Part shown: one piece after another, positions 6,577 through 17,909 of the stretch
Layout of the letters: each line of letters starts with the position of its first letter
Position numbering within the stretch: position 1 is the first letter of the stretch
Assembly: GCA_022483015.1 (NCBI GenBank)
Contig: JAKVOB010000001.1
Location: 62,001 to 126,000, forward strand
DNA from: Atopobiaceae bacterium
GTDB taxonomy: Bacteria > Actinomycetota > Coriobacteriia > Coriobacteriales > Atopobiaceae
Length of the DNA: 64,000 bases
Direction: 5' to 3'
Notes under the pieces: model-generated
Told to the model about the DNA's origin: nothing
Databases searched by the model: none
The model's input: only the letters and a program-made list of their open reading frames with translations
Made by a program: the position numbers and the translations under genes

Positions 6577-7251
6577 CTACAGCTTGAAGAGGTAGCCCAC
6601 GCCACGTACCGTCGCGATGTGCGAGGCGACCTGAGGTCCGACCTTCGAGCGCACGCGACGGATATGCACGTCGACCGTACGCGTGCCGCCGCAGTACTCG
6701 AACCCCCACACGCGATGGAGCAGCGTCTCGCGAGAGTAGGCCCGGCTGGGATGCGTCGCCAGGAAGCTCAGGAGCGAGTACTCCATGAGCGTGAGGTCGA
6801 CGGGCTTGTCATCGATATAGACCTGGTAGGTCGCCAGGTTGATCGTCATGTCGTCGACCGTGATGATGTCGGAGGGGGCGTTCTCCTCGCCTGGCCAGAG
6901 CAGCTGGGCGCACCGTACCTCGAACTCGGACTCGCCTGCCGTGGCAAGGATGAAGTCGGAGTGGCCCTGCACCGGCATGTGGAGCGCGGGGAGCTTGTCC
7001 TCGTCGACCACGATGAGCATGGGGATGCAGCCGTTCTCGCCCACATAGGCCTCGACGGCGTCCATAAGGTCCTGCATGATACCGGCGACGTCAAGCACCA
7101 CGAGGTCGAAGTCATGACCGCTCGTGATGGCCTGGTTGAAGGTGTCGGGGGTCGCCAGCAGCACCGATACGTCCAAGGCATGCGAAAGCTCGCGCATACG
7201 TTCGTGATGCCGCGTGGTCCGAGCTATGAGCAGGATGTTCTTATGATGCAT
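6577..7251 (-). CDS. OmpR-type winged-helix regulator with degenerate receiver
   Basis: DNA-binding regulator of 224 residues. The C-terminal half is a standard OmpR winged helix (LTLMEYSLLSFLATHP, YSRETLLHRVWG, TVDVHIRRVRSK, RGVGYLFKL). The N-terminal half has the receiver layout with a possible phospho-acceptor in DLVVLDVAG, but begins KNILLIARTTRHH and so lacks the acidic pair that binds Mg2+. No histidine kinase is adjacent. I chose the ATG at 7251 because GGGGG lies nine nt upstream; an in-frame start 60 nt earlier is possible. htrA lies downstream on the same strand, so co-expression is plausible but unproven. Confidence 0.87.
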   Translation of the reverse strand: MHHKNILLIARTTRHHERMRELSHALDVSVLLATPDTFNQAITSGHDFDLVVLDVAGIMQDLMDAVEAYVGENGCIPMLIVVDEDKLPALHMPVQGHSDFILATAGESEFEVRCAQLLWPGEENAPSDIITVDDMTINLATYQVYIDDKPVDLTLMEYSLLSFLATHPSRAYSRETLLHRVWGFEYCGGTRTVDVHIRRVRSKVGPQVASHIATVRGVGYLFKL

Positions 7252-7514
7252 CCTCTGAGACCCCCATGCCTTCCGGTGTGATGAGGCTGAATCCCTCGAT
7301 ATCCACCTCATCGCAGTACCCTGAGAATAGCACAGGCAGCAGGGGCTTGGGCATCACTCGAAAACCGCCGTGCCGAATCGCCTGCGTCGTCCCTCTTCAT
7401 GACCTGCCCCTTCCCCAGACGGTCGGCCAGGGGACGAGCGATGTCCCCCAGCCGCTGCGAACGTTCGACTCATAGGGTGGCCCCCGTTTGTTACCGCCGA
7501 GAAACGATGGGGAC

Positions 7515-7532: not shown

Positions 7533-7567
7533 TGAAACGAAGCGGTCACGCTGGCGATACGCACGCG

Positions 7568-7630: not shown

Positions 7631-8491
7631 CTAGATCTCCTTGATGTTGCCGATGAAGGAGGCCGTGCGGTCCTGCTGCGGATGGTCGAAGACGTCCTCG
7701 GGGAGCCCCTGCTCGACCACCACGCCGTCCTCCATGAACACGACGCGGTCGGCCACGTCGCGGGCGAACCCCATCTCGTGGGTCACCACGACCATGGTCA
7801 TGCCTCCGTTCTCGGCCAGGTCGCGCATGACGTCGAGGACGCCTCGCACGAGCTCCGGGTCGAGCGCGCTCGTGGGCTCGTCGAACAGCAGGACGTCGGG
7901 GTGCATCGCCACGGCGCGCGCGATGGCCACCCGCTGCTGCTGGCCGCCAGAGAGCTGTGCGGGCCTGTAGTCCGCGCGGTCGGAGAGGCCCACTGCGTCG
8001 AGCTGGCGCAGGGCCTCCTTCTCGGCCTCGGCCTTGTCCTTGCCCAGCACCTTGGTCTGGCCGATCATGACGTTGCCCAGGGCCGAGAGGTGCGGGAAGA
8101 GGTTGAAGCTCTGGAAGACCATCCCCAGATGCTTGCGCAGCTCGTTGACGTCGGTCTTCCTCTTGCCCGTGATCTCGGCGTCGTTGATGAGGATATGCCC
8201 TGCCGTGGGCGTCTCGAGCAGGTTGATGCACCGGAGCATCGTCGACTTGCCGGACCCCGATGGTCCCAGCACCACGACGACCTCGCCCGGCCATATGTCG
8301 AGGTTCACGTCCCTCAGGACGACGTTGTCCCCGAAGGTCTTGTTGAGGTGCTCGATACGGACGATGGGGTGCTCGCCCTCCACGAAGGCGTGCCGCGAGA
8401 GGGCCTGGTCATGCTCGAATGCCGACCTGGCAGCCTCCTCGGGGGCGAGGGGCTCGGGAATCTCGTCGAAGGTCTCCTTGCTAGCATGCAT
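7631..8491 (-). CDS. Polar amino-acid ABC transporter ATP-binding protein (GlnQ-like)
   Basis: Cytoplasmic ATPase that powers uptake of a polar amino acid with the permease and lipoprotein encoded just upstream. The 286-residue protein has Walker A GPSGSGKS (76-83), Q-loop VFQSFN, signature LSGGQ (180-184), Walker B LLFDEP (201-206) and the switch His in VVTHEMGF (His238). The first 42 residues are an extra acidic leader not usual in GlnQ. The ATG at 8491 is preferred because GGGGAGG lies eight nt upstream; a GTG at 8500 is less well placed. The gene overlaps the permease 3' end by 11 nt. Confidence 0.95.
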
Positions 8492-9977
8492 CGGAGGCAC
8501 CTCCCCTCATGCCGCCGGCAGCCGGGACGGCGTCGGCCTCGATCCTGGCGATGACCTCGTCGGCATCGTCATGCCCACCAGCCTTGAAGGGGGCCATGAG
8601 GGCGCCCCATGCGCTCGGCTTCCTGACCGAGGCCTGCACCGAGGTCGGGGCAGCGGCAGCCTCGGGAGCCTTCTGGGACGTCCCGAGACGGGCCTTGCCG
8701 GCCTTGGGCCTGGGTCCCGAGCCGGACTCGGAGCGCGCGATGTTCTTCTCGATGATGCCGACGACCTTGATGAGCGGCAGCGTCACGATGAGGTAGTAGA
8801 TGGCGGCCGCCATGTACGGCGTGATGTTGCCCGAGACCGTCGTGAGGTTCTTCGAGAACATCATGAGCTCCATGACGCCTACGCTCGAGAGGAGCGACGT
8901 GTCCTTGTACGAGGTGATGAAGTCGCTCGTCACCGTGGGGATCACGCGCCGCACCGTCTGGGGCAGGATGATCGAGACCATGGTCTGGGCCCGGTTCATG
9001 CCGAGGCTCGCCGCGGCCTCGTACTGGCCTTGGGGAATCGACTGGATGCCGGCACGGAAGATCTCAGCCAGATAGGCACTCGAGTTCACGGCCATGACGA
9101 TGACACCCAGGACGTTGTTGTTGATGTTGACGCCGACCATCGGCAGGCCGAAGAACATGATGTAGATCTGCAGGAAGAGAGGCGTGCCGCGCAGGACGTT
9201 GATGTAGGTCACGGCTATGGCGCGTACCACGCGATGCCGGGCGAGCTTCATGAACGCGAAGCACAGACCCAGCACGATGGCTATGGGATAGGCCACGACC
9301 ACGATGCCCAGGCAGACCACCCAGCCGCTGAACAGCGAGACGAACGAGGTGAGCAGGAGCTGGGGCTTGAAGAACATCCCCAGGAACTGGTTCGAGTTCC
9401 ACGCCGTCACCCAGGCCTGGCCATCGAGCCATGAGACGGCGGCCTGGAGCGGCGTGTTCGCGATCACGGAGATGGACGGGGACTCGGGCAGGGACCTCGT
9501 CTCGCCGTTCGTCTCGTACGTCCCCGTGATGGTGTAGTCACCACCGTCGGCCGGGAAGCTCATGCCCGTCACCTCGAGGCGGACGAGCGAGCCCTCGGGA
9601 ATGGCCTGGCCGAAGGTCACCACCAGGGAGGTGCCCGACGTCTCCGTGTCAGCCGAGACGTCCTGACGGTTGAGCCCCGCAAGCACGGTGACGCGCGTCG
9701 TCGAGCCGTCGAAGCTGCCCCCCTCGGGGACCGCCAAGGTCACCTTGGTGACGTCCTCGGCCGAATCGACCGTGCCCTCCCAGGTGAGACGGGTCGTCTC
9801 TCCGCCGATGACACCGTCGCCACCGTCCTCGTTGGGCCGCGCCGTAGCCTTGTCGCAGGTCAGGGCCTGAGCCTGCGTCGGATGCACCCATGTCACGGCA
9901 CCGTATGCGACGAGCGCGACGAACGCCAGCGCCACGAGGGTGCGGAGCCTCCGTATGGCTGATCCCGATCTGGACAT
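8481..9977 (-). CDS. Amino-acid ABC transporter permease with an exported N-terminal domain
   Basis: Membrane subunit of the amino-acid importer. Family permeases are usually 220-300 residues; this one is 498. It opens with a signal-like segment (about 10-37, ending AQA), then about 130 polar, beta-rich residues (41-172) predicted outside the membrane. The HisM/GlnP-type permease follows: several TM segments from about 205, LRGTPLFLQ, and an EAA loop around [15 protein letters not shown] 60-residue Ala/Pro/Lys-rich cytoplasmic tail ends it. The ATG at 9977 has AGGGAG seven nt upstream; 9983 is an alternative. The extra domain is not a solute-binding protein by length and I do not recognise it. 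Confidence 0.9.
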
Positions 9978-10035
9978 GCCCATGCTCCCTTCCAATCCGC
10001 CCCTTGAGGTGGGGCAGCCCCGAGGTGGTCGACGC

Positions 10036-11165: not shown

Positions 11166-12485
11166 CTAGAAGCCGGCGTAGCTCCGACCGCGCTCCCACT
11201 CCGTGACCGTGCTCGAGAACTCGTCCCACTCCTCGCCCTTGTGCTCCACGAGGAAGTCGAAGATGTGGTCGCCGAGGGTCTCGCGCATGAGCGAGCTGGC
11301 GGAGAAGGCCTCGACCGCCTCACCGAGGTTCCCGGGCAGACGGGTGGCATCGACCACGCTGGGATCGCTCCCGGGGCACTCGTCCGGAAGCTCGAGCCCG
11401 TCCTGGATCCCGCGCATGCCGGCGGCGAGCGTCACCGCCATCGCGAGGTAGGGATTGCACGAGGCGTCGGGCAGGCGGAGCTCGACGCGGCAGGAGGCCT
11501 GCTTGCCCGGCTTGTACAACGGGACGCGCACCAGGGCCGAACGGTTGCGGCGGCCCCAGGTGGTGTAGCAGGGAACCTCGCCATTGTCCACGAGGCGCTT
11601 GTAGGAGTTCACGGTCGGGTTGGTCACGAGGGCATACTCGGGCGCATAGGCGAGCAGGCCAGCCACGTAGTGGCGGGCGACGTCAGAGAGGTGGCTCCCG
11701 TCCTCGGTGTCCTCGCCCCAGAAGACGTTGTTGCCCTCGTGGTCGAACAACGACTGGTGCATGAAGAGGGCGGACCCTGCCGCATCTGCGAACGGCTTGG
11801 GCATGAACGAGGCGAACATGTCGTGCGAGAAGGCGACCTGCTTGACCACGAGTCGCGACGTCATGATGTTGTCTGCCGAGCTCAGCGCCTCAGCATGACG
11901 GAGCGAGAGCCCGTTCTGCGACGGCGCGATGTCATGATAGGAATACTCGACGGGGATCGACATCTGCTCGAGGGTGAGCACGGTGTCGCGGCGCAGGTCA
12001 CGTGCCGAGTCCGTGGGCGTGAGGTCGAAGTAGCCGGCCCCGTCGAGCGGCTTGGCCAGATGGTCGTCGGCGAAGTAGAAGTACTCGAGCTCGGGGCCCA
12101 CCACCGAGATGTAGCCCTGCTCGTCGGCCGCGCGGAAGACCCGCTCGAGGCAGGCGCGGGGGTCGCCGGCGAAGGGCTCGCAAGCCGGCGTCTTGATGTC
12201 GCAGAAGATGCGGGCGACGCCCGACTCCTCGGGACGCCACGGCAGGATCTGGAACGTGTCGGGGTCGGGGAAGGCCAGCATGTCCGACTCCTCCTGCGGG
12301 GCGAAGCCGTCCACGGAGGACCCGTCGAACCCGATGCCCTCCTCGAAGGCCTCCTCGAGGTCCTCGGGCGAGATGGAGAACGACTTGAGGTTCCCAAGGA
12401 CATCGGTGAACCAGAGCCGCACGAAGCGTATGTCGCGCTCTTCGACGGTACGTAGTACGAAGTCGATGTTCTGCTCGTTGGTCAT
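11166..12485 (-). CDS. Divergent class-I glutamine synthetase-like protein
   Basis: By fold this is a type I glutamine synthetase (439 residues): FDGSS (53-57), GPELEYF (Glu132, Glu134), SYKR, GRRNRS, Glu303 and CRVELRLPD (Glu335) are all present. Several residues nearly invariant in the family are not. The metal-ligand Glu of the GQxE motif is Gly192 (PSQNGL). The ammonium/glutamate-site NGSGMH block reads AGSALF, replacing the metal-ligand His by Phe241 and the Asn by Ala236. Another ligand Glu is Asp185. Canonical activity is therefore doubtful; a related gamma-glutamyl ligase or a regulatory role is possible. It lies upstream of the amino-acid importer with its own terminator. RBS GAGG precedes the ATG at 12485. 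Confidence 0.85.
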   Translation of the reverse strand: MTNEQNIDFVLRTVEERDIRFVRLWFTDVLGNLKSFSISPEDLEEAFEEGIGFDGSSVDGFAPQEESDMLAFPDPDTFQILPWRPEESGVARIFCDIKTPACEPFAGDPRACLERVFRAADEQGYISVVGPELEYFYFADDHLAKPLDGAGYFDLTPTDSARDLRRDTVLTLEQMSIPVEYSYHDIAPSQNGLSLRHAEALSSADNIMTSRLVVKQVAFSHDMFASFMPKPFADAAGSALFMHQSLFDHEGNNVFWGEDTEDGSHLSDVARHYVAGLLAYAPEYALVTNPTVNSYKRLVDNGEVPCYTTWGRRNRSALVRVPLYKPGKQASCRVELRLPDASCNPYLAMAVTLAAGMRGIQDGLELPDECPGSDPSVVDATRLPGNLGEAVEAFSASSLMRETLGDHIFDFLVEHKGEEWDEFSSTVTEWERGRSYAGF

Positions 12486-12666
12486 GAGGCTGCCTCACAG
12501 GTCAGAATCGAATGGGAGCCAACGCTCCGCCTAGCGTCGACACTTTCCCACATACGTGTTACATCGATGTTTCGGCCCGACCGCGAACGGTATGGCAGGC
12601 CACCTGGAGGGAGGGCATGCCACGGCTCCTCCATGGACGGGCGGGACCGCAAGGCGAGAGGGACCC

Positions 12667-12956: not shown

Positions 12957-13137
12957 GCAGACGACTTGCCCTTTCGGAAGGGCGCACAGTGGATGGTAGT
13001 GCGGCCCTCACGCTGCCGTCCATGTCTGATATACGTCCATTCATGCTGGTCTCGCTTGCCAACTCACTAATATGCCATACTCTATCCACAGGTCATCGCG
13101 CGCACGGAGGTGCGCGCCCAGCAGAGGGCAGGTCTTC

Positions 13138-13935
13138 ATGGCGAGCACCAAGACAGGGTCATTGGGCCGCACGGGAGTCGTGGCGTCTGACTGCATGCAG
13201 GTCATACCTCGGATCGACGGCGAGTCTGGGTCCTCGTACTCCTACCGGGTCCTCTATTACAACATCCTCATGCTCTACATGCCCCCTGGATCCTGGATTC
13301 GCGAGAGTGCCATCGCCCAGAAGCTCGGCCTGTCACGCACGCCGGTCCATGAGGCCGTGGCCCTGCTCAACGACCGCCACCTCGTCGACGTCGCGCCCCA
13401 GAGCGCCACGCACGTCTCGTGCATAGACATCTCGATGCTGCGACAGGGATGCTTCCTCCGCTCGTCCATAGAGCCGCTCGTCTTCAAGCAGGTCGCCGTG
13501 TCGATCTCGAACGAGTACCGCACCGCCCTCTCGAAGAACCTCGAGGCGCAGAGGGAGATTCCCGCAGGCAACCGCCCGGAGGACGAGTACCTCTACCTCG
13601 ACAACATCTTCCACCGCCTCGTCTACCAGGCAGCGGGCAAGGACTTCATCTGGGAGCAGCTCAGAAGGGCGAGCGCCCCCTATGACCGGGTGCGCTACAT
13701 GGGCCTGCTCTTCGGCTACGACCACCCCTCGATCGAGGACCACGAGTTCCTCTTCAGGTACCTCACGCTCGGAGGCATACCCGACGAGGAGGTCCTGGAC
13801 CTCATCCACGCGCACCTCGCCCGGTACGTGAGCTTCTTCGACCGGCTTGCCACCGACTTCCCCGAGTACTTCGTGTTCGACGAGGAGCAGCCCGACCCCA
13901 TCTCGTCCGAGGAGCCCATGTCCCTCATCGTATGA
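13138..13935 (+). CDS. GntR-family (FadR/FCD) transcriptional regulator
   Basis: A 266-residue regulator. Residues about 35-97 form the GntR winged helix (MPPGSWIRESAIAQKLGLSR then TPVHEAVALLNDR); residues about 100-245 are an all-helical FCD effector domain with the metal-site pattern DNIFHRLVYQAAG and SIEDHEFLF. FCD members bind small carboxylates, often sugar acids. It is convergent with the GH105 operon and shares a terminator with it. The nearby uronate genes make a sugar-acid effector plausible but unproven. The ATG at 13138 has AGG five nt upstream; earlier in-frame starts exist. Confidence 0.85.
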   Translation: MASTKTGSLGRTGVVASDCMQVIPRIDGESGSSYSYRVLYYNILMLYMPPGSWIRESAIAQKLGLSRTPVHEAVALLNDRHLVDVAPQSATHVSCIDISMLRQGCFLRSSIEPLVFKQVAVSISNEYRTALSKNLEAQREIPAGNRPEDEYLYLDNIFHRLVYQAAGKDFIWEQLRRASAPYDRVRYMGLLFGYDHPSIEDHEFLFRYLTLGGIPDEEVLDLIHAHLARYVSFFDRLATDFPEYFVFDEEQPDPISSEEPMSLIV

Positions 13936-13961
13936 CGAGAGCCCGTCACATTGCATCGCCA

Positions 13962-13999
13962 AGAGGAGGGGCCCGCTCGGTCGAGCGGGCCCCTCCTCT
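13962..13999. terminator. Bidirectional terminator between the GntR gene and the GH105 operon
   Basis: A perfect 18-bp inverted repeat (AGAGGAGGGGCCCGCTCG and its complement) around a 2-nt centre, located 26 nt after the plus-strand stop and 21 nt after the minus-strand stop of two convergent genes. Confidence 0.85.
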
Positions 14000-14020
14000 G
14001 ACTCGGACCGGGTGATCGGC

Positions 14021-14896
14021 CTAGAGACGCTCCAGGTACTCCCTGGACGCGACGGCCGTCTCGGGCGTGCTGTTCTCGACCACGGCCTGGAGATGGGGCT
14101 TCGTGCGGTCGGCCCACGCCACGATGGGTGCGAGGTCGAAGCAGCCCGTGGTGCCGGCGCCGTGGCAGACGAGTCGGCCGGCCTCGTCCACGGCACCAGC
14201 CATGTCAGGTACGTCCGCAGGCACGACCTCGCAGTCCTTGGCGTGGAGCACCTGTATCTCGCGGCCGCAGAGGTCGAGCATGCGTCCCACCTCGTCCTGG
14301 GCCTGGGGCAGGATGGACGCGTGGAGCAGCGCCACCGGATCATAGATGACGCCGAGGTTGGGGCTCGCCACCGCATCGAGCACCCCACGGCAGCGCTCAG
14401 GCGTGCAGACGACCTCGTTGTAGCCAGGCTCGATGGCGAGCGTCACGCCGAAGTGGGCGCAGGGCCCCACCGCACGGGTGAGAGCGGCGACGAAGGCCGC
14501 GAGGGCCTTGTCGCCGAAGCGGTCGGGATTGACCTCGTTGTTGGCAGAGGGCCTTCCCGTCTCGGTGCCCACGATGCCGCAACCCATCCACGCCGCGAAG
14601 CGGGCACATGACTCGTACTCGGCAAGGTAGTTGTCGAGCTGCGACGAGAAGGGCGTGGCGAGGTTCTTGTAGCAGCCGAAGACCGCGCAGTCGAGGTGGT
14701 TCCGGTCGAGCTCGCGGCGCAGGTGCGCGGCCAGCCCCGGGGTGAGACCGAACCGGTCGATGCCGTACTCGGCATAGACTACCTTGCTCGCCAGGTGCAC
14801 GCAGGTGAACCCCTGCTCATGGGCCATCTCGAGGCGACGCTCGAGCGATGCTGGCTCCATGTCGTGAAGACGTATGCCCACCGAGAGCCTGCTCAT
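14021..14896 (-). CDS. Sugar phosphate isomerase/epimerase-like TIM-barrel protein
   Basis: A 291-residue AP-endonuclease-2-type TIM barrel, the fold of xylose-isomerase-like sugar epimerases. Visible blocks are MSRLSVGIRLHD, GFTCVHLASK, GIVGTETG, LAIEPGYNEVVCTPER, LGVIYDPVALLH, HAKDCEVV and CHGAGTTGCFDL, with metal ligands expected at the Glu/Asp/His of these strands. It is 13 nt downstream of the GH105 gene, so it probably processes a sugar released by that enzyme. The exact reaction cannot be read from the sequence. The ATG at 14896 has GGAAGGA six nt upstream. Confidence 0.82.
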   Translation of the reverse strand: MSRLSVGIRLHDMEPASLERRLEMAHEQGFTCVHLASKVVYAEYGIDRFGLTPGLAAHLRRELDRNHLDCAVFGCYKNLATPFSSQLDNYLAEYESCARFAAWMGCGIVGTETGRPSANNEVNPDRFGDKALAAFVAALTRAVGPCAHFGVTLAIEPGYNEVVCTPERCRGVLDAVASPNLGVIYDPVALLHASILPQAQDEVGRMLDLCGREIQVLHAKDCEVVPADVPDMAGAVDEAGRLVCHGAGTTGCFDLAPIVAWADRTKPHLQAVVENSTPETAVASREYLERL

Positions 14897-14909
14897 GGCA
14901 CGTCCTTCC

Positions 14910-16097
14910 CTAGTCGGCGGCGCCGAAGTCGACGCCGCACTCACCTTCGAGCCCATCATGCCTGATGACCTCGATGTAGGCAAGGATGAGCGGGGCCACG
15001 CCCTTGGCGTCGTTCTTCACGACCGGCTCGCGCATGTAGTAGTCGAACGTCCCCTCGCGATAGGCGAAGCGCCCGCCGCCGTCGCCCATGCCTGCCTGCA
15101 GACAGATGCCATCGAGCTGCAGCTCGCCGTCGACCTCGGTGAGCTCGCGCTCGCAGATGCCGTCGAAGGCGCGACGGCCGTACGGGTAGTAGGCGTCCTC
15201 GAGCACGCCAAGGCGCACGCCCTTCATGATGGCGTTGGCGAAGATGGCCGATCCGCTCGTCTCGAGGTAGTTGGGCTTGCACTTGGGCATGTTGATGACC
15301 TGGTGCCACATGCCCGTCTCGGCATCCTGGTAGGGAAGCATCGAGTCGATGAGGTCCTTGAACATGGAGCGCAGCTCGTCACGCTCGGCGGACATGCTGG
15401 GGGGCATGATCTCCCAGGTGTCCACGAGCGCCATGGCGAACCAGCCCTCGGCGCGGAGCCAGAAGTTGGTGGACAGCCCCGTCACGGGGTCGCACCAGAA
15501 GTCGGAGCGCGACGAGTCGTACACGTGGTAGTAGAGCCCGTTGCGGTCGTCGCGCATGAGCTTCCTGACGTTCTCGAACTGGTGGAAGCTGTCGGAGCAG
15601 GCATGGCCGTCGTGGAACGACAGCTCGTACTGCATGTAGAACGGCTGGGCCATGTAGAGGCCGTCGAGCCAGACCTGGTTGGGATAGATGAGCTTGTGCC
15701 AGAAGTTGCCCTCCTTGGTGCGGGGTTGGTGCTCGAGCTGGCCATAGATCGTGTCCATGGCGCGACGGTACTTCTCCTTCTTGGTGTAGGCATAGAGGAT
15801 GTAGAGGGTCTTGCCGGCGTTGACGTTGTCCAGGTTGTACTCGAGCGGGTCGTAGTGCCTGATCGAGCCGTCCTCCTGCACGAAGTAGTCGATGTACTGG
15901 TCGGCGAAGATGAGGTACGAGTTGTCGGCGGTGATGTCATAGAACTCGAGGAGGGCCTTGATCATGCAGCCGTCGATGTAGTTCCAGGTGTTCTCCTTGC
16001 CGCTGCGCATCTTCTCGATGTTCCATGCCGGGGCCTGGGGGGTGGAGTTCTCCATCAGCTGTTGGATGTACCTGTCAAGAATGCTCGAGCAACCCAT
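14910..16097 (-). CDS. GH105/GH88 unsaturated uronyl hydrolase
   Basis: Removes the unsaturated uronic acid from the non-reducing end of oligosaccharides made by pectin or rhamnogalacturonan lyases. The 395-residue protein is the length of an alpha6/alpha6 GH105 enzyme. It has WNYIDGCMIKALLEFY near the start and NQVWLDGLYMAQPF, where Asp145 is the likely catalytic acid. There is no signal peptide, so the substrate must be imported. The ATG at 16097 follows GGGAGG. Two GTAAAC-type operators in the divergent promoter region link it to kduD and the LacI regulator. Confidence 0.9.
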   Translation of the reverse strand: MGCSSILDRYIQQLMENSTPQAPAWNIEKMRSGKENTWNYIDGCMIKALLEFYDITADNSYLIFADQYIDYFVQEDGSIRHYDPLEYNLDNVNAGKTLYILYAYTKKEKYRRAMDTIYGQLEHQPRTKEGNFWHKLIYPNQVWLDGLYMAQPFYMQYELSFHDGHACSDSFHQFENVRKLMRDDRNGLYYHVYDSSRSDFWCDPVTGLSTNFWLRAEGWFAMALVDTWEIMPPSMSAERDELRSMFKDLIDSMLPYQDAETGMWHQVINMPKCKPNYLETSGSAIFANAIMKGVRLGVLEDAYYPYGRRAFDGICERELTEVDGELQLDGICLQAGMGDGGGRFAYREGTFDYYMREPVVKNDAKGVAPLILAYIEVIRHDGLEGECGVDFGAAD

Positions 16098-16163
16098 GTG
16101 GGCCTCCCTGGTCGCGCGGCACCGTGGGTGCCGTCCCTGCCAGCCCACCACGCCCTCTATGCG

Positions 16164-16177
16164 GTAAACTGGTTTAC
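16164..16177. promoter_or_regulatory. LacI-type operator (GH105/kduD divergent promoter region, site A)
   Basis: GTAAACTGGTTTAC is symmetric except for its central TG. The identical 14-mer occurs at 27140-27153 in front of GH28. It lies 67 nt upstream of the GH105 start. The likely ligand is the LacI protein at 18069-19094. Confidence 0.75.
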
Positions 16178-16289
16178 TATGATGTCATCCATTCTGTATC
16201 AGCGTGCTGCCATGTCAAGGGAACCCCTCTGGGAAAACCGCGAAGGGACGGAAAACGGATGTGAGCGTTGTTCTTGTAACGATGCTTGA

Positions 16290-16303
16290 CAAAACCGGTT
16301 TAC
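16290..16303. promoter_or_regulatory. LacI-type operator (GH105/kduD divergent promoter region, site B)
   Basis: CAAAACCGGTTTAC overlaps a TTGACA-like -35 hexamer (16286-16291) pointing at kduD. Its centre is 126 nt from site A, about twelve helical turns, so one regulator could bridge both sites and control both directions. Confidence 0.65.
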
Positions 16304-16386
16304 TAGACTTGACTGTCAGGGAAGGCACATCATGTGCCCGCGCGCCCGCACCGTCGCGCGGGCCACGGCAACCCAGGAGGTTCCAC

Positions 16387-17196
16387 ATGGACGGAGACGT
16401 TCTCGACACGTTCAGGCTCGATGGGAAGGTGGCGCTCGTCACGGGCGCCGCCTACGGCATCGGCTTCGCCATAGCGCAGGCACTCGCCGGGGCCGGCGCT
16501 CGCATCGCGTTCAACTGCCGCGGGCAGGAGCACATGGACAAGGCACTCGCGGCCTATCACGAGGCTGGCATCGAGGCGCACGGCTACCTCTGCGACTGCA
16601 CCGACGAGGCCCAGGTCACCAAGATGGTGGGCGACATCGAGCACGACCTCGGCACCATCGACATCCTCGTGAACAACGCCGGCATCATCAAGCGCATCCC
16701 CATGTGCGACATGTCCGTCGAGGACTTCCGCGCAGTGGTCGACATCGACCTCAACGCCCCCTTCATCGTGTCGAAGGCCGTCATCCCGGCCATGGTCGAG
16801 AAGGGCCACGGCAAGATCATCAACATCTGCTCGATGATGAGCGAGCTCGGGCGCGAGACCGTCTCGGCCTACGCGGCAGCCAAGGGCGGGCTCAAGATGC
16901 TCACCCGCAACATCTGCTCCGAGTACGGCGCGGCCAACATCCAGTGCAACGGCATCGGACCCGGCTACATCGCCACGCCGCAGACCGCTCCCCTGCGCGA
17001 GCGCCAGGCCGACGGCAGCAGGCAGCCGTTCGACAGCTTCATCATCTCGAAGACCCCGGCGGCCCGCTGGGGGACGCCCGAGGACCTCATGGGTCCCGCG
17101 GTGTTCCTCGCCTCGGATGCCTCGGACTTCGTCAACGGCCACATCCTCTACGTCGACGGCGGCATCCTCGCCTACATCGGCAAGCAGCCCGAGTAG
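16387..17196 (+). CDS. kduD: 2-dehydro-3-deoxy-D-gluconate 5-dehydrogenase (SDR family)
   Basis: NAD(P)H-dependent reduction of the 5-keto-uronate intermediate to KDG in unsaturated uronate catabolism. The 269-residue short-chain dehydrogenase has the cofactor loop TGAAYGIG (19-26), NNAG near residue 97, and the catalytic Ser...Tyr-x-x-x-Lys (SMMSELGRETVSAYAAAKGG). The substrate-side ATPQTAPLR loop is typical of KduD/gluconate 5-dehydrogenases. It starts at an ATG six nt after AGGAGG. The RpiB-type isomerase follows 74 nt later. Confidence 0.87.
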   Translation: MDGDVLDTFRLDGKVALVTGAAYGIGFAIAQALAGAGARIAFNCRGQEHMDKALAAYHEAGIEAHGYLCDCTDEAQVTKMVGDIEHDLGTIDILVNNAGIIKRIPMCDMSVEDFRAVVDIDLNAPFIVSKAVIPAMVEKGHGKIINICSMMSELGRETVSAYAAAKGGLKMLTRNICSEYGAANIQCNGIGPGYIATPQTAPLRERQADGSRQPFDSFIISKTPAARWGTPEDLMGPAVFLASDASDFVNGHILYVDGGILAYIGKQPE

Positions 17197-17270
17197 CCCC
17201 ACACTTGCAGTCCCCGTGCAGCCCACGTCATAGTCCAGGCCGTCATGCGGCCCCAACGCTAGGAGAGATC

Positions 17271-17909
17271 ATGAGAATCGCCCTCATCAACGAGAACAGC
17301 CAGGCCGCCAAGAACGGCGTCATCGAGAAGGCCCTCACCACCGTCGTGGAGCCCATGGGCCACACCGTCGACAACTACGGCATGTATGCCGCAGACGACG
17401 CCGCACAGCTCACCTACGTGCAGAACGGCATCCTCGCCGCGACCCTGCTGAACTCCGGCGCCGCCGACTACGTCATCACCGGCTGTGGCACGGGCGAGGG
17501 CGCCATGCTCGGCCTCAACGCCTGGCCCGGTGTCATCTGCGGGCACGTGGAGGACCCCCTCGACGCCTACACCTTCGCGCAGATCAACGACGGCAACGCC
17601 ATCGCCATCCCCTTCGCCAAGGGCTTCGGCTGGGGTGGCGACCTCAACCTCGAGTACATCTTCGAGAAGCTCTTCTGCGAGGAGTCCGGCCAGGGTTACC
17701 CCCGCGAGCGCGCCGTGCCCGAGAAGGCCAACAAGAAGATCCTCGACCAGGTCCGCGACATCACCATGGGCGACTTCCTGACCTCGCTCAAGTCCGTCGA
17801 CCGCGGACTCGTCCGCGGGGCCTTCGCCGGCGAGCGCTTCGAGGAGCTCTTCTTCGCCAGCTGCAAGGACGAGGCCATCGCCGAGGCCGTCCGCGAGATC
17901 CGCGCCTAG
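17271..17909 (+). CDS. RpiB/LacAB-family isomerase, probably DhuI-type uronate isomerase
   Basis: A 212-residue sugar isomerase of the RpiB/LacA/LacB superfamily (MRIALINENSQAAKN, DYVITGCGTGEGAMLGLN, WPGVICGHVEDPLDA, NDGNAIAIPFAKGFGWGG). Streptococcal DhuI, which converts 4-deoxy-5-ketouronate before a KduD/DhuD dehydrogenase, belongs to this superfamily. No KduI is seen in the window. Position directly after kduD and beside the GH105 operon supports the same step here. A LacAB- or RpiB-type activity on another sugar phosphate is the alternative. AGGAGAG precedes the ATG. Confidence 0.8.
   Translation: MRIALINENSQAAKNGVIEKALTTVVEPMGHTVDNYGMYAADDAAQLTYVQNGILAATLLNSGAADYVITGCGTGEGAMLGLNAWPGVICGHVEDPLDAYTFAQINDGNAIAIPFAKGFGWGGDLNLEYIFEKLFCEESGQGYPRERAVPEKANKKILDQVRDITMGDFLTSLKSVDRGLVRGAFAGERFEELFFASCKDEAIAEAVREIRA

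What the first reader, a model, noticed from the sequence alone, without database searches (positions are those of the whole stretch)
11166..12485. Glutamine synthetase homologue missing canonical metal and substrate residues
The fold motifs are intact (DGSS, the ExE pair, NRS and a late Glu). But the GQxE ligand Glu is Gly192, the ligand His of GSGMHxH is Phe241, its flanking Asn and Gly are Ala236 and Ala239, and another ligand Glu is Asp185. In the GS family these positions bind the catalytic metals and glutamate. The gene sits beside an amino-acid importer. It may be a ligase with another substrate, a moonlighting sensor, or an inactive paralogue. If it is the only GS of the genome the question becomes sharper.
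Basis: partly seen in the sequence, partly recalled or inferred. Interest (0 to 1): 0.62.

Follow-up and report, generated by a model that had tools for sequence, protein, structure and literature searches.

The report
Dead glutamine synthetase paired with regulator
In two sister families of actinobacteria a glutamine synthetase has lost the residues that hold its catalytic metals, yet nearly every genome keeps it beside, and loses it together with, a GlnR-like nitrogen regulator, which suggests that the dead enzyme now works as a nitrogen sensor.

Summary
The window protein has a type I glutamine synthetase (GS) fold but lacks metal ligands E212, E220 and H269 (E. coli numbering). All three are missing from all 82 distinct relatives read in its family (Atopobiaceae) and one sister family, and all three are present in 68 of 69 relatives outside them. 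It is not a decaying copy: 99 of 101 good family genomes keep it, and median dN/dS is 0.08. It is not the only GS: an intact type III GS is present here, and its N-terminal domain is found in 192 of 199 genomes of the order. The gene is linked to a GlnR-like orphan regulator, with an amino-acid importer between them in most of the family. The two genes are lost together, and GlnR-box-like repeats lie at the gene's promoter. Similar pairs with an intact GS occur elsewhere in Actinomycetota. Residues of the archaeal 2-oxoglutarate site are kept. Best reading: a GS that lost catalysis and is retained as the signal-sensing partner of a GlnR-type regulator. Loss of metal ligands and genetic linkage are shown; protein contact and ligand are inferred.

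The parts
11166..12485 (-). GS-like gene without the catalytic metal ligands (pseudo-GS), 439 aa
11763..11933 (-). codons from D185 (E212 position) through G192 (E220) to F241 (H269): the lost metal ligands
   Evidence: alignment to E. coli GlnA and relatives
11940..12425 (-). codons that span F21, R23, R84, R165, R166 and S182, equivalent to the 2-oxoglutarate allosteric site of M. mazei GS (F24, R26, R87, R172, R173, S189)
12549..12573 (-). GlnR-box-like repeat GAAAC-n6-GTAAC with n5-TGTG, 88 bp upstream of the GS start; the only match of the long form in this genome
10036..10965 (-). amino-acid ABC importer, substrate-binding lipoprotein (SBP_bac_3)
   Evidence: synteny
8481..9995 (-). amino-acid ABC importer, permease with about 200 extra N-terminal residues
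   Evidence: synteny
7631..8500 (-). amino-acid ABC importer, ATPase (best named match GlnQ, below its cut-off)
   Evidence: synteny
6577..7251 (-). GlnR-like orphan OmpR-type regulator; start taken at the conserved MHHK (the longest ORF begins at 7311)
7490..7505 (+). loose GlnR-box-like repeat between the importer and the regulator gene
   Evidence: not general in the family
7534..7549 (+). second loose GlnR-box-like repeat between the importer and the regulator gene
   Evidence: not general in the family

Best explanation
The gene encodes a type I GS that has lost the metal sites needed for ATP-dependent ligation and is kept as the signal-sensing partner of the GlnR-like regulator encoded in the same cluster. 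Proposed mechanism: the protein still assembles like GS and changes state with a nitrogen-status metabolite. 2-oxoglutarate, through the retained inter-subunit allosteric site, is the first candidate; glutamine, glutamate or a nucleotide, through the retained Arg/Glu side of the pocket, is the second. In one state it binds or releases the regulator, whose receiver domain lacks a phosphorylation pocket, and so sets transcription of its own operon (GlnR-box promoter) and, in this family, of the amino-acid importer. Ammonium assimilation itself is left to the type III GS. Shown here: loss of metal ligands, purifying selection, a single origin of the loss, gene linkage, co-loss, promoter repeats, and older pairs with an intact GS. 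Inferred: physical contact with the regulator, identity and sign of the ligand, control of the importer.
For: E212, E220 and H269 absent in 82/82 clade members while all are present in 68/69 outside; the clade has one origin with support 100. Purifying selection: median dN/dS 0.077 in the family. Retained in 99 of 101 good family genomes. Regulator co-retained in 99 of 101, both missing in the same two genomes; across the order 17/18 v 0/15. GS and regulator adjacent in other families of the order and adjacent without the importer in some family loci. Regulator closest to GlnR by sequence and fold, with a degenerate receiver pocket. GlnR-box-like repeat at the GS promoter in 40/57 and 20/25 sequences against under 0.5 expected in each set; the long form occurs once per genome and only there in 17 of 27 genomes. 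Regulator beside type III GS in f5. Older pairs with intact GS in seven other families of the phylum. 2-oxoglutarate-site residues kept, all six in 70/82. Intact type III GS as the real enzyme.
Against: No physical interaction, ligand binding or expression data. Retention of the 2-oxoglutarate residues is not specific, because other conserved Arg columns are kept too. One genome (G145) has the GS without a detected regulator. No strict GlnR box was found before type III GS in the loci checked, so control beyond the cluster is not shown. The long box is absent in 10 of 27 genomes. Co-loss counts are not phylogenetically independent. The window protein keeps Asp185, E132, E134 and E335, so weak metal binding is not excluded.
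Confidence: 0.66

Rival explanations
1. It is a catalytically dead partner that modulates another protein, such as the type III GS or the importer, and does not act on the regulator; linkage to the regulator gene reflects co-regulation only.
For: The importer lies in the same gene run in most of the family; type III GS is present in nearly all genomes of the order.
Against: The sister family keeps the pair without the importer. Type III GS persists in genomes that lost the pair, for example G016, G143 and G164. Adjacency and co-loss are with the regulator.
Confidence: 0.15
2. It is a ligase for another substrate, with a rebuilt active site that no longer needs the usual metal ligands.
For: The Arg/Glu side of the pocket (E131, R321, R339, R344, R355, E357, R359) is conserved, and other GS-like proteins use amines in place of ammonia (PMC5403932, PMC6529630).
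Against: The substitutions at E212, E220, H271 and E129 vary among clade members instead of settling on a new set, and E129 is Lys or Arg in 41 of 57. GS-like ligases with solved structures are more distant (GmaS, naphthylamine GS).
Confidence: 0.1
3. It is a non-functional relic drifting towards loss.
For: Focal loss of catalytic residues; one genome (G043) carries broken extra copies.
Against: Median dN/dS 0.077-0.123, similar to relatives with intact ligands; retained in 99 of 101 good genomes; mean column entropy similar to the active group.
Confidence: 0.03
4. It is an ordinary active GS and the substitutions are an artefact of local misalignment.
For: Overall identity to relatives with intact ligands reaches 58%.
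Against: The motifs align in register without gaps; the model matches active GS at 1.5 A; 82 sequences agree.
Confidence: 0.02

Closest known systems
Bacillus-type GS with GlnR/TnrA (PMC9249791)
   Same: A GS acts as nitrogen sensor for a transcription regulator, and gene linkage of GS with the regulator is conserved.
   Different: There the GS is active and signals through glutamine feedback inhibition, and the regulators are MerR-type. Here metal ligands and the glutamine-feedback Arg (R62) are lost, and the regulator is OmpR/GlnR-type.
Actinobacterial GlnR, orphan OmpR-type nitrogen regulator (PMC10704036)
   Same: The window regulator has GlnR as nearest solved relative, a degenerate receiver pocket, and a box of the published form at a nitrogen-related promoter.
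   Different: Its match to Pfam GlnR_1st is below cut-off and it forms its own clade beside GlnR. It is paired with a GS gene, whereas GlnR is described as an orphan without a linked sensor gene.
2-oxoglutarate-responsive GSI-alpha of methanogens (PMC11957540, PMC10799026)
   Same: Closest solved fold (8tfk, 8s59), and the six residues of the allosteric site are conserved.
   Different: Those enzymes are active GS; this protein lacks the metal ligands.
Lengsin (vertebrate GS-domain protein, PDB 2j9i)
   Same: From general knowledge: a GS-fold protein described as without GS activity.
   Different: Distant in sequence (E 6e-12), vertebrate, and not linked to a transcription regulator.
Fusarium fujikuroi GS (PMC3829961)
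   Same: Reports that sensing and catalytic roles of a GS can be separated by mutation.
   Different: Engineered mutants of an active eukaryotic GS, not a naturally dead paralogue.

Membership tests
Type I glutamine synthetase (GlnA) as an enzyme | GS fold with both GS domains | tested here: met
   Pfam domains over cut-off; Z 56 to 8tfk
Type I glutamine synthetase (GlnA) as an enzyme | Metal ligands E212, E220 and H269 present | tested here: not met
   D185, G192, F241; absent in 82/82 of the clade
Type I glutamine synthetase (GlnA) as an enzyme | NCBIfam GlnA equivalog cut-off (TIGR00653) | tested here: not met
   389.6 bits against 429.15
Type I glutamine synthetase (GlnA) as an enzyme | Glutamine-forming activity | not testable with these tools
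   Needs an assay
Actinobacterial GlnR (for the regulator at 6577-7251) | OmpR-type DNA-binding domain closest to GlnR | tested here: met
   Trans_reg_C over cut-off; best PDB matches 8hig and 8hih by sequence, 8hih by fold
Actinobacterial GlnR (for the regulator at 6577-7251) | GlnR N-terminal domain (PF21695) | tested here: inconclusive
   21.1 bits against a cut-off of 27; 21 of 40 relatives match at E 0.01 or better
Actinobacterial GlnR (for the regulator at 6577-7251) | Receiver domain without a phosphorylation pocket | tested here: met
   No acid pair and no Lys at the usual places in the alignment
Actinobacterial GlnR (for the regulator at 6577-7251) | Binds GlnR boxes | tested here: inconclusive
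   Boxes of the published form lie at the linked promoter; binding itself not testable here
Actinobacterial GlnR (for the regulator at 6577-7251) | Groups inside the GlnR clade | tested here: inconclusive
   Own clade beside GlnR, support 87
Bacillus GS-GlnR/TnrA circuit | MerR-type regulator linked to GS | tested here: not met
   The linked regulator is OmpR-type
Bacillus GS-GlnR/TnrA circuit | Arg62 of glutamine feedback inhibition | tested here: not met
   P63 in the window; Arg in only 4 of 82 of the clade
Bacillus GS-GlnR/TnrA circuit | GS binds the regulator | not testable with these tools
   Needs a binding assay or a structure of the complex
2-oxoglutarate-responsive GSI-alpha | Six residues of the allosteric site | tested here: met
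   F21, R23, R84, R165, R166, S182; all six in 70/82 of the clade
2-oxoglutarate-responsive GSI-alpha | Binding of 2-oxoglutarate | not testable with these tools
   Needs calorimetry or a structure

The most novel reading that the evidence does not exclude
Atopobiaceae and a sister family carry a dedicated pseudo-GS sensor: a GS-shaped oligomer without catalysis that reads 2-oxoglutarate and directly gates a GlnR-type regulator. The older pairs with intact GS would then make GS the signal input of this branch of GlnR-like orphan regulators.
Probability: 0.35. Interest if true: 0.9.

Novelty: new variant of a known kind. Interest (0 to 1): 0.76.

Why it matters
How actinobacterial GlnR regulators learn the nitrogen state of the cell is not settled: they lack a phosphorylation pocket and a linked sensor gene (PMC10704036). 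Here the neighbouring GS has kept its linkage, promoter box and co-inheritance with a GlnR-like regulator while losing its metal ligands. This separates enzyme from sensor in nature and gives a clean protein pair for testing whether GS is the signal input. It also warns that a gene annotated as glutamine synthetase in these genera may not make glutamine; metabolic models should use the type III GS.

Tried and rejected
Local misalignment of the metal motifs: rejected. Only GS of the genome: rejected. Relic gene: rejected by selection and retention. Importer as the primary conserved partner: rejected, because the sister family and several family loci have GS and regulator without it. Glutamine feedback of the Bacillus kind: R62 lost. 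Strict box before type III GS: not seen in the loci checked except single loose matches. Box before the regulator gene: 4 of 33 family loci and 0 of 25 sister-family loci, so not general. The first genome pattern, GWAAC-n6-GAAAC, found nothing in this genome because its repeat has the order GAAAC-n6-GTAAC. The half-site pattern alone is not specific genome-wide; counts are near the reversed control in several genomes. Prior reports: no paper on a bacterial pseudo-GS or on this pairing was found in the open library, which misses most subscription journals.

Full report
OBSERVATION. The ORF at 11166-12485 (-) encodes 439 aa with both GS domains over Pfam's cut-offs, but scores 389.6 bits against the GlnA equivalog cut-off of 429. 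Aligned with E. coli GlnA and about 150 relatives, D185, G192 and F241 stand at E212, E220 and H269, and A236 and A239 at N264 and G267. The AlphaFold model (pLDDT 90.8, pTM 0.92) superposes on M. mazei GS over 429 residues at 1.5 A, Z 56.

EXTENT. 129 of 140 genomes of the family have an orthologue, nearly always a single copy, and 99 of 101 good genomes do. The family is Atopobiaceae by the title of L003, whose contig has the same length as G020:C2. In 57 distinct family sequences and 25 of a sister family (f10; probably Coriobacteriaceae, which the tool does not name) E212, E220 and H269 are never present. In 69 sequences outside (35 of f2, 14 of f3-f9, 20 from other taxa) all three are present in 68. 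E129 is Lys or Arg in 41 of 57 family sequences. E131, R321, R339, R344, R355, E357 and R359 are kept almost everywhere. Asp at the E212 position is unique to the window's genome among those read.

ONE LOSS, THEN SELECTION. The two families form one clade with support 100 on a stem of 0.44 changes per column. Median dN/dS among close pairs is 0.077 (f1) and 0.123 (f10), against 0.130 in f2 with intact ligands (simple pairwise estimates, pairs share branches). Columns conserved in the active group and relaxed here are 131, 180, 182, 185, 192-194, 203, 215, 243 and 349, mostly around the metal site, while mean column entropy is similar (1.07 against 1.17). f2 already shows erosion of N264 and R62, so the decline may have been stepwise (inference).

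NOT THE ONLY GS. The genome has one more GS-domain gene, a type III GS with the motifs NEVAPCQHE and NGSGKH intact. The type III N-terminal domain is found in 192 of 199 genomes of the order.

THE PARTNER. Downstream on the same strand lie an amino-acid importer and then an OmpR-type regulator. The regulator's nearest solved relatives are actinobacterial GlnR: 8hig and 8hih by sequence, 8hih by fold. It lacks the acid pair and the Lys of a phosphorylation pocket. Its match to Pfam GlnR_1st is below cut-off, and a quick tree puts it beside the GlnR clade with support 87. In the family the usual order is GS, binding protein, permease, ATPase, regulator; in several genomes without the importer the regulator follows the GS directly. 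In most loci read from f10, f2, f4, f6, f8 and f9 it follows directly.

CO-LOSS. Within the family the regulator is found in 128 of 140 genomes and in 99 of 101 good ones; the two good genomes without it (G016, G029) are the two without the GS. In 33 genomes picked across the order, 17 of 18 with the GS have the regulator at 291 bits or more, and none of 15 without the GS has a hit above 149 bits (Fisher 1.5e-8). The lineages are not independent, the sample was picked for absences, and the threshold was read off the gap; the 149-bit hit in G159 may be a diverged remnant. The absences cover 12 genera in three families. In f5 the regulator is the divergent neighbour of the type III GS in 4 of 4 loci, and in f9 locus L140 the type III GS is divergent from the GS-regulator pair, which ties the regulator to nitrogen assimilation.

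PROMOTER. A direct repeat of the form of the published GlnR box (gTnAc-n6-GaAAc; PMC10704036) lies 68-131 bp upstream of the GS start in 40 of 57 family and 20 of 25 sister-family sequences on the coding strand; 0.44 and 0.24 are expected from shuffles counting either strand. The longer form GWAAC-n6-GWAAC-n5-TRTG occurs exactly once in each of 17 of 27 genomes, each time at this promoter by coordinates, with none for the reversed control. In the window three loose matches occur in 64 kb, all in this cluster (0.6 expected). The patterns were built from these promoters, so the counts measure specificity and are not an independent discovery test.

DEEPER PAIRING. With the regulator profile run over 119 genomes of the phylum, 12 of the 20 best loci read outside the order, from seven families, have a type I GS directly upstream on the same strand, all with E212, E220 and H269 present. 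The pairing is therefore not confined to the clade that lost the ligands and is probably older than the loss.

LIGAND. In M. mazei GS, 2-oxoglutarate binds an inter-subunit site made of F24, R26, R87, R172', R173' and S189' (PMC11957540), with a similar site in Methanothermococcus GS (PMC10799026). The window has F21, R23, R84, R165, R166 and S182, and 70 of 82 clade members have all six, allowing Tyr and Thr. This is consistent with a 2-oxoglutarate sensor, but other conserved Arg columns of the fold are kept as well, so it is not specific evidence.

MECHANISM. The most likely reading is a dead GS kept as the sensing partner of the GlnR-like regulator. Loss of ligands, selection, linkage, co-loss and promoter repeats are shown; contact, ligand, sign of the effect and control of the importer are inferred. 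It would work like the Bacillus GS-GlnR/TnrA circuit (PMC9249791) but is not a member of it: the regulator is of another family, and R62 and the metal ligands are lost. In M. smegmatis overexpression of GlnR bypasses the need for the GS paralogue glnA2 (PMC6142876), and in Fusarium sensing and catalytic roles of GS can be separated (PMC3829961); both are compatible leads and not tests of this case.

LIMITS. All results come from sequence and from single-chain models. The literature search covered an open library only.

Noticed in passing
window 8481-9995 (-): The importer permease carries about 200 extra residues before its membrane domain, with a weak match to DUF2808 (22.9 bits, below cut-off).
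   Followed up: no
L070 (G043:C1:800000-815000) and G043:C16:1092-2120: One family genome has a truncated tandem copy of the pseudo-GS directly upstream and a further copy with two in-frame stops.
   Followed up: no
L095 (G079:C24), L160, L162, L164: A second, shorter type I GS-like paralogue (about 405-412 aa, 38% identity to the window protein) with intact GPGQNE and H269-equivalent motifs occurs in a few genomes of the order but not here.
   Followed up: partly
L277-L280 and L140: In family f5 the regulator gene is divergent from the type III GS gene, and in one f9 locus the type III GS is divergent from the GS-regulator pair.
   Followed up: partly
GS of family f2, e.g. L141, L147, L149: These keep the metal ligands but have Cys at S53, Pro at N264 and often no Arg at R62, so they may be partly impaired already.
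   Followed up: partly
window 13072-17909: By eye the flank holds GntR-like regulator, sugar isomerase-like, glycoside hydrolase-like, short-chain dehydrogenase and RpiB-like ORFs, perhaps a uronate or pectin utilisation cluster (no family search run).
   Followed up: no
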